Below are positions 6,034 to 40,887 of a stretch of DNA of 64,000 bases, in pieces. The position numbers were made by a program, and so were the translations under genes. Source of the stretch: Opitutia bacterium ISCC 52 (GTDB lineage Bacteria; Verrucomicrobiota; Verrucomicrobiia; Opitutales; UBA2995). Positions within the stretch are counted from its first letter, which is position 1; each line of letters starts with the position of its first letter. Where the stretch lies: assembly GCA_014529675.2 (NCBI GenBank), contig CP076040.1, forward strand, positions 3,863,894 through 3,927,893, in the 5' to 3' direction. The notes under the pieces were generated by a model. That model had not been told where the DNA came from. It saw nothing but the letters and a program-made list of their open reading frames with translations, and made no database searches.

Positions 6034-6450
6034 TCATCCGGGCCAGAGATTTAGGCGGGCCGCCTTAAAGTGATGATCAAAGCCAAAAACGTGTTTGATT
6101 CCTTCTCGTCTCATCAAAACAAAGGATAGGCAGTCCGTATAGGAGACAGCCTGGTCAGAATATTTTTTCATAAGCCTGAGCGATTCCCGAAGGTCTTCTT
6201 CCGAAGTCGTAAGCCACTGAATAATCCCTGAATTTAAATAATTGTATCCACATTCTGCAGCAAAAGCATAAGAGTGCCGACGCGCGAGTAAGGTCATGCA
6301 CTCGTCTAAAATATGCTCCCCACAATAGAGTTTACAGCGAGATTTAGAGAGACGCTGCCAAGCCTCATTGGCTGCAGCATGAAACTGATCACGACTTAAT
6401 TCGCGGGCGATAAAACAACCCGTATCCAGAAACAGTTTCCTTGGAATCAT
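6034..6450 (-). CDS. PIN-domain ribonuclease toxin (VapC-type)
   Basis: This 138-residue protein fits a VapC-type PIN toxin, a Mg-dependent RNase that blocks translation when freed from its antitoxin. Acidic residues are in the expected places: D9 in LFLDTGCF, the DE of HILDECM, D104 in SYTDCLSFVLM, and D124 in VFGFDHHF near the end. Its ATG overlaps the antitoxin stop in an ATGA arrangement, so translation is coupled. The pair sits between two copies of a 40-bp repeat, and a fragment of a second PIN protein lies 380 bp away, which suggests a site used more than once by such modules. Confidence 0.88.
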   Translation of the reverse strand: MIPRKLFLDTGCFIARELSRDQFHAAANEAWQRLSKSRCKLYCGEHILDECMTLLARRHSYAFAAECGYNYLNSGIIQWLTTSEEDLRESLRLMKKYSDQAVSYTDCLSFVLMRREGIKHVFGFDHHFKAARLNLWPG

Positions 6451-6689
6451 TCGTCGTAGAGGTAACGATCATGATTTACGGACAGATCCGAAGGAACGAT
6501 CTTATCAGACGGTTGCCAGTTACTGAACAAGGGATCTTCAGCTCTTTCAACTTCGGCCCCCTCATCCTGAACCACAGCTGCTTCCAATTGTTTTCGAATC
6601 AACCCCGTTAGAGTAGTCCCCTTCTTCTTTGCCAAAAGCTTCGCTCGCTTCTGTAAATCCTCTGGCAACAATATGGTTGTTTTATTCAT
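6447..6689 (-). CDS. Ribbon-helix-helix antitoxin of the PIN pair
   Basis: This 80-residue protein precedes the toxin and overlaps it by 4 bp. The N-terminal half (KTTILLPEDLQKRAKLLAKK, then TLTGLIRKQLEAAV) reads as a ribbon-helix-helix DNA-binding fold. The acidic C-terminal half, with FSNWQPSDKIVPSDLS and a DRYLYDE end, resembles the toxin-binding tail of CopG/VapB-type antitoxins. It probably represses its own promoter in the roughly 50 bp upstream, which ends at the second 40-bp repeat. Confidence 0.85.
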   Translation of the reverse strand: MNKTTILLPEDLQKRAKLLAKKKGTTLTGLIRKQLEAAVVQDEGAEVERAEDPLFSNWQPSDKIVPSDLSVNHDRYLYDE

Positions 6690-6740
6690 ATAGATACTTT
6701 TCTCTTTTTATCCATATTCAAAAGTTAAAAACAGTCAAGC

Positions 6741-6780
6741 GCACAACCTGTTACTAAAATGGTAGTCATATTTCTAAACC
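6741..6780. repeat. 40-bp direct repeat, copy 2
   Basis: Matches 5656-5695 at 39 of 40 bases in the same orientation. Read on the minus strand it still encodes the epimerase start (MTTILVTGCA) and then meets unrelated sequence, so it is a truncated duplicate of that gene's 5' end. Confidence 0.9.
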
Positions 6781-6826
6781 GCTCAGGTACGCTAATGGTA
6801 CCGAATTTAGACGCTGCGTACGCATT

Positions 6827-7012
6827 TTGGAAGAAACAGCCGACACTTCCATCCACCTCGAAAACCTGATCAAACGCCACAGGCTCAAAGGAAAACGAAT
6901 TCACGATGCCAATATCGTCGCCACCATGCGCACCCACGGTCTCCAGCAAATCGCCACCCTCAACCCCGCCGACTTCCGCATTTTCAGCGACCTGGAATAT
7001 GCCCAATGGTAA
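6827..7012 (+). pseudogene. C-terminal remnant of a second PIN-domain toxin
   Basis: About 60 residues remain. KGKRIHDANIVATMRTHG and ATLNPADFRIFSD match the end of type II PIN toxins, where the pattern is G-x-x-(V/I)-H-D-A and then a T-x-N-x-x-D-F close. The first half of the domain, with its first catalytic aspartates, is absent, and no antitoxin precedes it. The preceding sequence is a CGCTAATGGTACC repeat motif (about 6790-6803). It lies on the opposite strand from the intact pair at 6034-6689 and is not derived from it, since the sequences differ. Non-functional remnant. Confidence 0.7.
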
Positions 7013-7072
7013 AATCACCAAGCGGACTCATCCCATTCTGGTATGCCCACTCAGCTTTCGTAGACAATCCCA

Positions 7073-7143
7073 CTCTTCCTCTTCCTCTTTCTCTTCCTCT
7101 TCCTCTTCCTCTTTCTCTTCCTCTTCCTCTTCCTCTTCCTCTT
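7073..7143. repeat. (CCTCTT)n hexamer tract
   Basis: About twelve imperfect copies of CCTCTT with a few TCTCTT variants. The same tract occurs at 25931-25967 and 61861-61921, and in the opposite sense at 13321-13352, 17039-17068 and 20391-20440. Reading frames through it give only Ser/Phe or Leu/Phe runs. Confidence 0.9.
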
Positions 7144-7397
7144 AATATTTGCCTTGTTGTCTATCCAGGCAACTACCAGCACCTAACTCCTAAGGTTTAG
7201 CCTTCCTCCATCCACTATTCCCCATTCCCGCAGCTCAGCTGGTACCATTAGCGTTAGATTAGCGTACTTAAGCGGTTAGAATGTATCAACTCTAGTCTAG
7301 CCTCCTCCAGCCTCATAGAGTCCCAGCTCCCCTAAGCTTTTTAGTATTGGTCCGATCCGCAAAAGCAGTCGTACATGTCGCTAAACGCTCGGAACCC

Positions 7398-7529
7398 TTA
7401 CTCATCATACAGTCCCAGCTTTCCCAAACTGTCCAGTATGCTTCGAAACCCTGGATCGCTAATCAGGTCTTCAAACGAATGCGTGCTCGAGATCCGGAAG
7501 AAGTACTGCGTGTCCTTCATAGCTTGTTG
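7398..7529 (-). pseudogene. C-terminal fragment of an unidentified protein
   Basis: The minus strand reads as a protein end: HSFEDLISDPGFRSILDSLG then KLGLYDE and a stop at 7398. It resembles the DPRFxxLLxxLGL ends of TPR-rich adenylate-cyclase/TolB-like proteins, but the match is weak. A stop lies in frame just upstream at 7530-7532, so only about 40 residues survive. A diverged second copy of the same end (ILKSLGELGLYEAGGG) lies beyond it at about 7302-7355. Treated as a remnant. Confidence 0.35.
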
Positions 7530-7589
7530 TTAAAGCGACGTTGGGAGAGGTAAATGTACCGTTCCATAATTATGGATCGTTCAGTTCCC

Positions 7590-7609
7590 ACCGACTGGGT
7601 CGGTTTTTT
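7590..7609 (+). terminator. Hairpin terminator with no obvious intact gene
   Basis: ACCGAC-TGG-GTCGGT followed by six T's is a compact plus-strand terminator. Only debris lies upstream on that strand, so it may be left over from a lost gene. Confidence 0.6.
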
Positions 7610-7789
7610 GCGAACAGGAGCGTGGGGGATGTTATTCTGCATGGATGAATCCATTTGTAGATGTGTCGTTTCACTCGCTACTCGCGCGGAGACGCAGGAG
7701 CGCGGAGACAGCAAAGAGCGCAGAGCTAAGGGCAAAAGAGGAAAAGCTGAGGTGGGCGTTACACTCCTGAAGGAGTGAGGCCTCCTAGG

Positions 7790-8803
7790 TTAGAGGGTTT
7801 GGCTGTGTTGCATCCAGCGCCAGGCGTCTTGGCACATGGCGTCGAGGTCGAGCTTGGCTTCCCAACCGAGGAGCTCCTTGGCTTTGGTGCCTTCAGAATA
7901 GCAGGTGGGGATATCGCCAGGTCGTCTATCAACGATCTGATAGGGAACGGCTTTGCCGCTGGCCTTTTCGAATGCCTGGATCACTTCGAGCACACTGTAG
8001 CCATTGCCGGTTCCCAGATTCACAATCAGAGGTTCGTCGGGTGAGTTTTCACCTGTTAAATAATTCAAGGTAGCGAGGTGGGCCTTCGCGAGATCCACCA
8101 CATGGATATAGTCCCTGACTCCAGTGCCATCGGGAGTTGGATAATCGTTGCCAAAAACACTGACCTGCTCGCGCATGCCGGTAGCCACCTGCGCAATAAA
8201 CGGCACCAGGTTATTGGGCACTCCGGTCGGTGCTTCTCCAATCAGTCCTGAGGCATGCGCTCCAACTGGATTGAAGTAACGCAGGATCCCCAACTTCATC
8301 TCGGGTCGTGAAGCAGCCAAGTCTAATAGGATTTGCTCCATCATGGCTTTGGTTTGGCCGTAGGGATTAGTCGCCTTGATCGATTCATCTTCCGTGATAG
8401 GCACCGCGCTCGGCTCTCCGTAAACCGTGGCTGAGGAACTAAAAACAAAGGTGTTCACCTGATGCTCGACCATGCAGTCGAGCAGGTTGACAGTGCCGGT
8501 GATATTGTTTCGGTAGTAACGAAGTGGATACGCCACCGACTCGCCGACGGCCTTGAGGGCAGCAAAGTGAATGACTCCGTCAATCGAATGATTACGGAAC
8601 ACCGACGAAAGATCCTCAGGGTTGAGCAAATCACCTTCCACGAGCTCCACCGACTTTCCGGAAATTTTTTCGACGCGCTCCAATACTGATCGTTCACTGT
8701 TGGAAAAGTTGTCGAACACGATCAACTCATGCCCGCTCTCGAGTAGTTCGACGTTGGTGTGACTGCCAATGAAACCGGCGCCTCCTGTAACTAATATGTT
8801 CAT
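7790..8803 (-). CDS. galE: UDP-glucose 4-epimerase
   Basis: GalE interconverts UDP-glucose and UDP-galactose using bound NAD in the cytoplasm. From the ATG at 8803 it is 337 residues, the usual length (the frame extends 6 codons further). It has GGAGFIGSH at the N-terminus, VIHFAALKAVGESV, the SSSATVYG serine region and NPYGQTKAMME with the catalytic Y-x-x-x-K. ILRYFNPVGAH, TPDGTGVRDYIHVVDLA and VNLGTGNGYSVLEV are all standard GalE motifs. It is a single gene bordered by repeat-rich spacers on both sides. Role: galactose use and precursors for surface polysaccharide. Confidence 0.95.
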   Translation of the reverse strand: MNILVTGGAGFIGSHTNVELLESGHELIVFDNFSNSERSVLERVEKISGKSVELVEGDLLNPEDLSSVFRNHSIDGVIHFAALKAVGESVAYPLRYYRNNITGTVNLLDCMVEHQVNTFVFSSSATVYGEPSAVPITEDESIKATNPYGQTKAMMEQILLDLAASRPEMKLGILRYFNPVGAHASGLIGEAPTGVPNNLVPFIAQVATGMREQVSVFGNDYPTPDGTGVRDYIHVVDLAKAHLATLNYLTGENSPDEPLIVNLGTGNGYSVLEVIQAFEKASGKAVPYQIVDRRPGDIPTCYSEGTKAKELLGWEAKLDLDAMCQDAWRWMQHSQTL

Positions 8804-31794: not shown

Positions 31795-32240
31795 CGAGCT
31801 ATCGCAGCGGAGAGCAAGGAGCAGAGAGCTGAATAATCCCCTCGTCCTTAAAACATAATGTATTGTATTTCAAGGTGTCACCACCGCTGAAACGGAGTTG
31901 ATTCTTGGAACGCCGAGCACCGGCTCGGCATTTAAGAATATATTTTAACCGCTTAAGTACGCTAATTTGACGCTAACAGAAAACCAAGCATTATACATTC
32001 CACGGTGTTGTTAATCTGCACTCATTACATTCGCTGGCAGATGTGTCGCCTTTTCAGGCTCGGTACCACCGTGGTTACAATTTTGGGCGACTGTTGGTGT
32101 CACTTCGCTAGAAACGCCGAGGGCGCCGTAAGTCGTAACAGGCGGACACCTTAGGCTTCGCTTAAAAGCTTCGACCCAACGCGGTCGGCGATGCGTTCCT
32201 ACCCTTATTAGCGAATATTGAAATGGAATCCGATTACTGA
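31795..32240. other. Intergenic stretch with several repeat families
   Basis: No gene. It holds GCGATAGC/GCTATCGC (31788-31805), CCGCTTAAGTACGCTAATTTGACGCTAA-type words (31951-31978), GCGGTCGGCGATGCGTTCCTACC (32183-32205) and a GATTACTGATCACTGATTACC repeat (32232-32252). The repeat provides the stop codon of the next fragment. Confidence 0.6.
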
Positions 32241-38681: not shown

Positions 38682-39550
38682 CTACTCTTCCTCAGTCGCT
38701 TCCCGGGATCCGCGACCCGTGCGCTCTCGTGGAGATTCCTCACCTTCAACCAGGTTACGTAACGCTCGGTTGGTTTCAATACGCTCGATGCGCTCTTCCA
38801 TTTCGGTCATGACGCCCTCCATGCCACGAACATCCATGATCCGTTCGAGCACGGCATTACCTTCCTCCTTGGTTTGCTCCCAAATGCTAAGAATGAATCG
38901 GGCTCGGTTGAGCTCTGGAACCACGTACTCCTTTAAATCAGATGCAAGAATGTCATCGACGATTTCCTGCAGTCGTTGGTCGCTTAAGTCGGGTTCGAGC
39001 ATGTTCTGCTGAGTAATAGGAACGTATTTGTAAATCACTCTTGGAAAGTCCGTGATGCGCACCTCCGATCGGTGTTCACGCTGTTTGGTCGTATGGAAAA
39101 AACGGGTGATGTTCAATCTGAGATTAATATCGCGAATCAAACTGAGCTTACCTGAGCCGAGTATTTCTTCGAATGTGGTCTGCTCCATGACGGGTTGTTC
39201 CCACCCAAAAGCCGAGGCAACCACCACCAATTGAAGAAACGCTTCAGGGTCGTCGATCGGCTTTCCGTTCAGGTAAGGCTCTACATCGATCAGTGCTTGC
39301 TCCTTACGCTGAACCGCGCGCTCGAACACAGAAATCCGTCGAAGGCTACTTTCCAGCTCTTCATTCAAGCGCACGAGGACCTGCTTCTCCTGGATACGCA
39401 TGATGCGGAAATTGTTCCAGTTGTTCAGCTGCAGCGCCAAGAGTACCCCGATAACAATGAGAAGATCTCACCCGCAGCATAGAGGATGTACTTACGTGTG
39501 CCTAAAGTGCCAAGCAGGTTGCGTCTGAGATTTCTGAGAAGTCGAAGCAT
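38682..39550 (-). pseudogene. DUF6090-type membrane protein, frameshifted
   Basis: The full gene would start at the ATG at 39550 (MLRLLRNLRRNLLGTLGTRK, YILYAAGEI) and continue as LIVIGVLLALQLNNWNNFRI in a second frame to a stop at 38682. A one-base loss at about 39461-39467, inside the membrane helix, breaks it. The intact part has a coiled-coil character (RIQEKQVLVRLNEELESSLR) and an Arg/Glu-rich end. The layout (short cytoplasmic start, YAxGEIxLxxxGxLxALQxxNWNN helix, periplasmic helical domain) is that of DUF6090 proteins. Function is not known for the family. A sequencing error cannot be excluded. Confidence 0.7.
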
Positions 39551-39756
39551 GGGAGAAGTTAACCACTAATGGACACCAATTGACACGAATAAATTCAATC
39601 AAAACCTGAACCCCGAGAGCCGGCGGAGCCGGGGACCGCCAGCCTTCGTTAAAACTTCGGCACGGCACGGCTTATCTACGCTTATGGTACGCTTAAATTT
39701 ATTTCAGTTTTATTATTAGCGTTAAATAAGCGTCCTTTAGCGGTTTAAAACTGTAT

Positions 39757-40506
39757 TCATCTTCTCTCCAATTCAACTTCGATCTCGGCCAGAAGCTCGT
39801 TCGCTTCTCCCATTTGAGTTGAGTACAAAAACTCAAGGAATTCTAAGCGATTTCGCTGAGGAATAATTAATCGGCGAAGGTCTGAATCGAAGACCGAGGC
39901 AACAACCGATTTTGCCATTTCGTCACTCATTGATTCAATCGAAGTATTGATAGCCCCACCCGTTCCTCAAGGAACCAAATCAAGGGTTAGCAACCCGTAC
40001 TTACCTTTCACAGCATCCCCTCGCCTTTCCGTATCATTATTGCGCAAGTAATAAGCACTAACGAGCTCTCGCAATTCGAGCTTTCGAATTAACTGAAGTT
40101 TGCCTGAGCTAACCAGATCATCGTAAGTAGTGATAGGCATTCGCGGCGTAGAATAACCAAAAGAACCCGATCGGACTACCGCGGTGAGAAATTCGTCATC
40201 ATCTGAAATAGGCTCTCCATTAAAAACGGAGGCAAAATGCTCCAACGCCTCTTTTGTCTTAGACAAGGCAGACGATTGAATTGAAGAAATGATTGCCACG
40301 TGCCGATTCACTTCATTGCTGATTCGAGTCAGAACTTCTCTCTCCTCGATGCGCTCCATTCGGCGATTGTTCCAGTTGCCAATCTGAAGTGCGATCAGGA
40401 TACCGACAACGATGAGCAGGATCTCGCCGATGGCGTAGAGGAAATACTTTTTAACGCTGTTCACTTGGATGAGGTCTTTGCGAATGATGCGGAGGAGATG
40501 GAGCAT
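39757..40506 (-). pseudogene. DUF6090-type membrane protein with an internal stop
   Basis: The second paralogue: MLHLLRIIRKDLIQVNSVKK, YFLYAIGEILLIVVGILIAL and QIGNWNNRRMERIEEREVL at the start. The frame hits TGA at 39967-39969 (after LLTLDLVP) but carries on without shift for 69 more codons that match the family (ESMSDEMAKSVVASVFDSDL, IPQRNRLEFLEFLYSTQM) to the stop at 39757. Reading through the TGA gives 249 residues, close to the other copy. The 179-residue product may still be made. Divergence from the neighbour is large, so this is an old duplication. Confidence 0.7.
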
Positions 40507-40887
40507 GGATTTAGGAGATGGAAGTTAAGAGGTAGAACGAATTACCATCAATACAATACGGAGAGCCAGCATTCGCCGGGGACCGCTCGATCACGCTTAT
40601 GGCACGCTTAATTTGAATACATATTTTTTTAGCGTTCTACCGAGGATTGAAAAGTCGACACTCCCCGGCGGTCAACCGACCGGAACATAAGCAAAGATGA
40701 GCGGTTAAAATATATTTTTTCATGAAAGAGGAAGAGAGTGTGTTGCCCGAGAAGAAGACCACCTGGCAGGAGAAGTAATGACTATCGAATCCGGGATTGA
40801 GTAATGAAACTCCCTATTGTTTAAAAAGCTTAGATATTCCAAACTCTTGGTTTGCACTAAAGAAACCAAGAAAGATAAAACCTACAA
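40507..40887. other. Intergenic stretch with the CGCTTAATG repeat family
   Basis: No gene. It holds GACCGCTCGATCACGCTTATGGCACGCTTAA-type words (40584-40612), AGCGTTCTACCGAGG and GAGCGGTTAAAATATAT (40702-40718), matching similar words at 39653-39745. The right 170 bp before the propeller gene is AT-rich and could carry its promoter. Confidence 0.55.

What the first reader, a model, noticed from the sequence alone, without database searches (positions are those of the whole stretch)
38682..40506. Both DUF6090 paralogues disabled, in different ways
One copy has a one-base loss within its membrane helix, the other an internal TGA with an intact frame beyond it. Independent inactivation of tandem paralogues of unknown function suggests relaxed selection, or programmed recoding. 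The second copy's conserved downstream frame leaves TGA read-through as a possibility.
Basis: partly seen in the sequence, partly recalled or inferred. Interest (0 to 1): 0.5.

Follow-up and report, generated by a model that had tools for sequence, protein, structure and literature searches.

The report
Decaying copies of a membrane-protein family
Two neighbouring copies of a little-studied bacterial membrane protein are broken by two different mutations, as are most other copies found in the same genome, which looks like ordinary gene loss in a fast-turning-over family and not a special way of reading stop signals.

Summary
Both lesions are present in the sequence. Copy 1 (39550..38682, minus) loses its frame inside the membrane helix. 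Copy 2 (40506..39757, minus) has TGA at 39969..39967 with an open frame beyond. "Relaxed selection" fits; "programmed recoding" does not. Of 10 DUF6090 copies counted in this genome, 7 are broken, at different codons and by all three stop types; four other genomes of the genus have 9 broken of 36, named (mostly Bacteroidota) loci 13 of 263. At the TGA codon the three nearest homologues have sense codons for three different residues. SelB and tRNA-Sec stay below cut-off, and TGA ends 5 of 31 long ORFs. A genome-wide sequence fault is unlikely: 0 of 49 ABC-ATPase matches hold a stop. Two ortholog pairs that include broken copies have pN/pS of 0.26 and 0.36, so those losses are recent; in one pair both species are broken, at different codons. 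The wider pattern is a near-constant membrane anchor joined to a variable helical domain, with anchors more alike at synonymous sites within arrays, suggesting partial gene conversion.

The parts
38682..39550 (-). DUF6090 copy 1, broken by a frame change; the product as read stops after 41 residues, inside the membrane helix
39458..39466 (-). stretch where copy 1 changes frame (net one base short, modulo 3)
   Evidence: exact base not resolvable from the sequence alone
39757..40506 (-). DUF6090 copy 2, with one in-frame TGA at codon 180 and an open frame to codon 249
39967..39969 (-). TGA codon that ends copy 2 early, before the last long helix of the domain as modelled on an intact homologue
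   Evidence: helix positions
40369..40506 (-). anchor module of copy 2 (start codon to about codon 46), alike in DNA to anchors of other family members
   Evidence: 82% over 166 bases to the broken copy L051 of G001; 79% over 96 bases to the broken copy L045B of this genome

Best explanation
Both genes are recent, independently formed pseudogenes of a multicopy DUF6090 family that is decaying in this lineage. Intact DUF6090 proteins are predicted to be a short basic N-terminus, one membrane helix and a helical-bundle domain outside the cytoplasm (helices predicted; topology inferred from the basic N-terminus). The family multiplies in arrays, keeps a near-constant anchor, varies its outer domain and loses copies often. 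Shown: the lesions, the excess of broken copies in this genome, the lack of a conserved recoding site, and low pN/pS in two ortholog pairs that include other broken copies. Inferred: that neither window copy makes a working product, that selection on the family has relaxed here, that the window losses are as recent as those of the measured copies, and that anchors are homogenised by partial gene conversion.
For: 7 of 10 copies broken here; 9 of 36 in four other genomes of the genus; 13 of 263 in named loci (Fisher p 0.020 and 3.9e-7). Lesions lie at different codons and include TAG, TAA and TGA. 0 of 49 ABC-ATPase matches hold a stop (Fisher p 3.5e-7). L048 (two TAG) against intact L072: pN 0.175, pS 0.683. 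L047 against L074, both broken: pN 0.223, pS 0.629. Five pairs of intact family members give pN/pS 0.36 to 0.54, so these two pairs are no less constrained. L047 and L074 lie beside homologues of the same gene and share no lesion. Copy 1's product ends inside the anchor; copy 2's lacks the helix modelled at residues 190-242 of an intact homologue.
Against: Neither window copy has a match above 40% identity over most of its length, so selection on these two genes themselves could not be measured. pS in the measured pairs is near saturation. No second strain was available, so each single lesion could still be a consensus error. Other families here also show in-frame stops (5 of 23 acetyltransferase matches; 4 of the 150 sulfatase matches shown), though some may be matches running over the natural stop, so decay may not be special to DUF6090. 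Three copies in this genome hold two or three stops and no frameshift, slightly odd for plain neutral decay.
Confidence: 0.85

Rival explanations
1. One or both lesions are sequencing or assembly errors and the genes are intact.
For: Each copy needs only one event and both otherwise keep family features. The genome is a single contig of unknown read type. Another gene in the window (acetyltransferase, 44175 to about 44610) also looks broken.
Against: 0 of 49 ABC-ATPase matches hold a stop and all lie in open frames of 212 aa or more. Long ORFs exist elsewhere in the window, up to 1380 aa. This genome's share of broken copies is far above that of the ABC control, and other genomes of the genus and named genomes also hold broken copies.
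Confidence: 0.08
2. Programmed recoding: TGA read-through in copy 2 and ribosomal frameshifting in copy 1.
For: The frame beyond the TGA is open and homologous. Several paralogues also have in-frame stops with open frames beyond.
Against: The codon is sense (ATT, CTC, AGG) in the three nearest homologues. Stops in paralogues lie at unrelated codons and are of all three types. SelB and tRNA-Sec are below cut-off. TGA is a normal terminator. No unusual RNA structure. By inspection, with no scan run, the copy 1 site holds no slippery heptamer.
Confidence: 0.03
3. The truncated products are useful in themselves, for example copy 2 as a shortened anchored protein, or the downstream part of copy 1 made from an internal start as a soluble domain.
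For: Copy 2 keeps the anchor and most of the domain. Copy 1's remaining frame can start at TTG 39440.
Against: Truncation points differ between the broken copies. In the model of an intact homologue the last long helix follows the point of truncation. No internal start was tested for a ribosome site.
Confidence: 0.04

Closest known systems
DUF6090 (Pfam PF19578)
   Same: Copy 2 is over the family cut-off; the anchor signature is shared; several copies per locus are common in the named loci.
   Different: Both copies are interrupted, and this genome has a high share of broken copies.
Independent inactivation of a gene by different mutations, as reported for arginine decarboxylase genes of Chlamydia trachomatis (PMC2720952; title and start of abstract seen in the listing)
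   Same: Loss by different lesions in separate lineages or copies.
   Different: Here the copies are members of a multigene family of unknown function in an uncultured-type Opitutales bacterium.
Families with constant and variable parts, such as PE/PPE of Mycobacterium (PMC12209268; listing only) and Opa of Neisseria (PMC13183285; listing only)
   Same: Multicopy family with constant and variable parts (for these two families partly recalled).
   Different: No homology was tested. Here the constant part is a membrane anchor, and no phase switch or expression site was found or sought.

Membership tests
DUF6090 (PF19578) | Score over the curated cut-off of 23.5 bits | tested here: met
   Copy 2: 29.3 bits. 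The open part of copy 1 (39440..38682) gives no match; copy 1 is assigned by its match to copy 2 and by two pieces against the profile built here.
DUF6090 (PF19578) | N-terminal anchor with the shared Y-x-x-x-x-G-E-I ... G-I-L-x-A-L-Q ... W-N signature seen in the 84-sequence alignment | tested here: met
   Copy 2 in one frame; copy 1 split over two frames.
Selenoprotein or other programmed TGA read-through | TGA kept at the same codon in homologues | tested here: not met
   ATT, CTC and AGG in the three nearest homologues.
Selenoprotein or other programmed TGA read-through | SelB and tRNA-Sec in the genome | tested here: not met
   Best SelB match 179.6 bits against a cut-off of 242.25; best tRNA-Sec match 42.9 against 47. 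Matches below or above cut-off occur in all 14 control genomes in both searches, over the cut-off in 2 and 5.
Programmed frameshifting | Frame change at the same place in homologues | tested here: not met
   Other frame-changed copies break near other codons (L050 near 77, L069 near 193, L123 near 75).
Four-helix-bundle sensor domains (Tar type) | Fold | tested here: inconclusive
   VIA-align Z 9.0 to 2asr (rmsd 3.4, 135 aligned), among many unrelated bundles up to Z 13.1; Foldseek best E 0.08.
Anti-phage defence proteins (PADLOC) | Profile match | tested here: inconclusive
   No family matched more than 1 of 84 family members, best E 0.00037.

The most novel reading that the evidence does not exclude
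DUF6090 arrays are a recombination-driven repertoire: a shared anchor module is kept alike by gene conversion and joined to ever-changing outer helical domains, and broken copies with otherwise open frames persist as donors for intact ones, as in silent-cassette systems.
Probability: 0.1. Interest if true: 0.6.

Novelty: new member of a known kind. Interest (0 to 1): 0.25.

Why it matters
It turns a possible recoding case into ordinary pseudogene formation. It also points to a widespread membrane-protein family, found with several copies per locus mainly in Bacteroidota, whose near-constant anchor and variable domain resemble families that meet changing partners. No paper naming it (DUF6090 or PF19578) was found in the library held here.

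Tried and rejected
Nonsense excess: five of the seven broken copies here carry only in-frame stops, which first looked like tolerated stops. A count that lets frame changes compete equally gives, for copies that I judged still readable end to end, 6 nonsense against 3 frameshift genes in the genus and 4 against 3 or 4 in the named loci. This is not a clear excess (no test run), so it was dropped. The remaining broken copies of the 29 look truncated or rearranged.

Mutator by loss of MutY: three stops in L048 and L047 face Glu codons in an orthologue, though one of them faces a Leu codon in the outgroup L066. A MutY-like gene of 360 aa is present (264.3 bits, just under the cut-off of 286.5). 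Dropped.

Mobile element: the DNA between the copies has no full-length second copy in the genome, only a 39-base match.

Functional neighbours: 13 of 84 listed flanking genes of named loci were scanned. Two are short-chain dehydrogenases, three have no Pfam match at the cut-off used, and the rest differ; no shared function is evident. Defence link: none evident. Fold search: only generic helical bundles; the PDB sequence search gave nothing better than E 0.035.

Origin by lateral transfer: matches occur in 6 of 88 relatives, own genome included (protein search), and in 2 of 288 genomes drawn from the phylum, own included (Pfam search), which suggests acquisition. A tree of the variable domains (235 tips) splits the Opitutales-side copies into 16 groups among the named ones. 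Four of the multi-copy groups have support of 0.97 or more, others 0.33 to 0.79 or single tips; distances are large and backbone support was not examined, so donor and direction are unresolved.

Rows dropped before counting: profile matches that start after profile position 8 or score under 20 bits were not counted as copies. These include L054 of G001, which one search shows with a TAA inside, and several domain fragments in G001 and G002. Nine copies running off a contig end (8 named, 1 in G004) were set aside. A copy counts as intact if at least 200 codons follow the start of the match. G003, of the same genus, has no match. For the codon comparison only 198 named copies with a near-full-length match were used, and four sequences on the Opitutales side were left out.

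Full report
What is there. The two genes lie on the minus strand. Copy 1 starts at 39550 and changes frame inside its membrane helix, near 39458-39466. As read, it stops at codon 42, while the remaining helix and domain continue in another frame to 38682. Copy 2 starts at 40506, has TGA at codon 180 (39969..39967) and stays open to codon 249. One event explains each. They match each other at E 2.6e-27, and copy 2 passes the DUF6090 cut-off.

The rest of the genome. A Pfam search found 9 matches and a protein search 10 in the 4.8 Mb, single-contig genome. The same-genus genome G004 is, by a record of equal length encoding the same protein, an uncultured Opitutales bacterium, so this genome is taken to be of that order. 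With a profile built from 31 near-full-length frames, 10 copies bearing the anchor were counted in this genome: 3 intact and 7 broken. Other genomes of the genus: G001 5 broken of 18, G002 2 of 6, G004 1 of 9, G005 1 of 3, together 9 of 36; G003 has none. In 79 named loci, mostly Bacteroidota, 13 of 263 assessable copies are broken. Fisher p is 0.020 against the rest of the genus and 3.9e-7 against the named loci. Copies are related, and the named loci are among the best 80 of at least 571 by similarity to this subfamily, so these p-values are rough.

Is it a sequence fault? None of 49 ABC-ATPase matches in the genome holds a stop; this control counts in-frame stops, and would show frameshifts only through shortened matches. 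Among the 150 sulfatase matches shown 4 hold a stop, and 5 of 23 acetyltransferase matches do, one of them in this window; some may run over the natural end of the gene. A general fault is therefore unlikely, but broken genes are not confined to DUF6090, and each window lesion by itself remains unverified by reads.

Is it recoding? At the TGA codon copy 1 has ATT, the G001 homologue CTC and the G004 homologue AGG. Counted from the first matched residue, stops in other copies here fall at codons 47, 60, 122 (L045B), 72 (L046), 68, 141 (L047), 163, 169 (L048) and 103 (L049, where the homology ends), with all three stop types. SelB and tRNA-Sec stay under their cut-offs. In 31 long ORFs picked from the window TGA ends 5, TAG 10 and TAA 16. 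The RNA around the TGA folds no better than shuffles (z 0.81). Frame changes in other copies are elsewhere. Nothing found supports a programmed event beyond the open frame itself.

How old is the loss? The window copies have no close full-length homologue (best 36%, 40%; a truncated G001 copy, L051, reaches 53% over 90 residues of the N-terminal side). Other broken copies do have orthologues. L048 (two TAG) against intact L072: pN 0.175 and pS 0.683. L047 against L074, both broken at different codons: pN 0.223 and pS 0.629. Five pairs of intact members have pN/pS 0.36 to 0.54, against 0.26 and 0.36 here. With L066 as outgroup, L048 has 25 own amino-acid changes and L072 17, a mild excess. Most divergence therefore happened under constraint and these stops are recent. 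L047 and L074 both lie beside a homologue of the window's 44650-48012 gene (E 3.6e-23 and 2.4e-22), so one locus appears to have been lost twice.

What the protein is. A model of the intact G004 homologue (84-sequence alignment, mean pLDDT 88.5, pTM 0.80) is all helix: a long helix 17-93 that starts with the membrane anchor, then main helices 101-113, 124-132, 141-173 and 190-242. Structural comparison gives only generic bundles: designed proteins to Z 13.1, the Tar ligand domain at 9.0, Foldseek best E 0.08. The tool warns that helical bundles reach such values without kinship. Copy 1's product would end inside the anchor; copy 2's would lack the last long helix.

The wider pattern. In pairs that blastn reports among 23 copies, the DNA of the anchor, from the start codon to about codon 46, is about 66-90% alike, often with little likeness downstream; for example L044 and a G001 copy share 85.5% over 138 bases but only 22% of residues downstream. 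To separate this from amino-acid constraint, I compared codons only at identical residues. In 45 named loci the within-locus excess over other loci is 0.077 for the anchor (positive in 40 of 45) and 0.015 for the domain (25 of 45), Wilcoxon p 7.4e-5; in 5 loci of the genus it is 0.127 and 0.017, p 0.062. This fits partial gene conversion of the anchor within arrays. It is not proof: no exchange was caught in the act, the anchor excess is larger than the domain excess in only 31 of the 45 loci, and two of the five genus loci, including L045 of this genome, show no anchor excess.

Best account. A multicopy anchored-bundle family with frequent duplication, domain divergence and loss is decaying in this lineage, and the finding shows two of its losses. 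The family's function is unknown. I infer an extracytoplasmic binding or sensing role from the anchor-plus-bundle design and the variable domain; this is weakly supported. No paper in the library names DUF6090 or PF19578.

Noticed in passing
window 44175 to about 44610, minus: An acetyltransferase (GNAT) gene also looks broken: its N-terminal part lies in another frame with an in-frame stop, and the C-terminal part is open.
   Followed up: partly
window 39678-39749, 40593-40636, 31943-31976, 7247-7277: A dispersed intergenic repeat of about 30-46 bases recurs in the window and in other stretches of the genome.
   Followed up: partly
L050:2394-3161 (-), L058:1074-1841 (+), L160 from 6361 (+): In-frame insertions of about 6-12 residues in the otherwise near-constant DUF6090 anchor, as if small repeat elements had landed there.
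   Followed up: no
whole genome G000: Very many sulfatase genes: 150 matches shown, with 312 candidates in the first look of which 150 were scored.
   Followed up: no
L050:7142-8182 (-): An integrase-core (transposase-like) gene sits inside the DUF6090 array of G001.
   Followed up: no
window within 6400-7850 (roughly 7080-7190): A simple purine-rich repeat that reads as a long Glu/Lys run on the minus strand.
   Followed up: no
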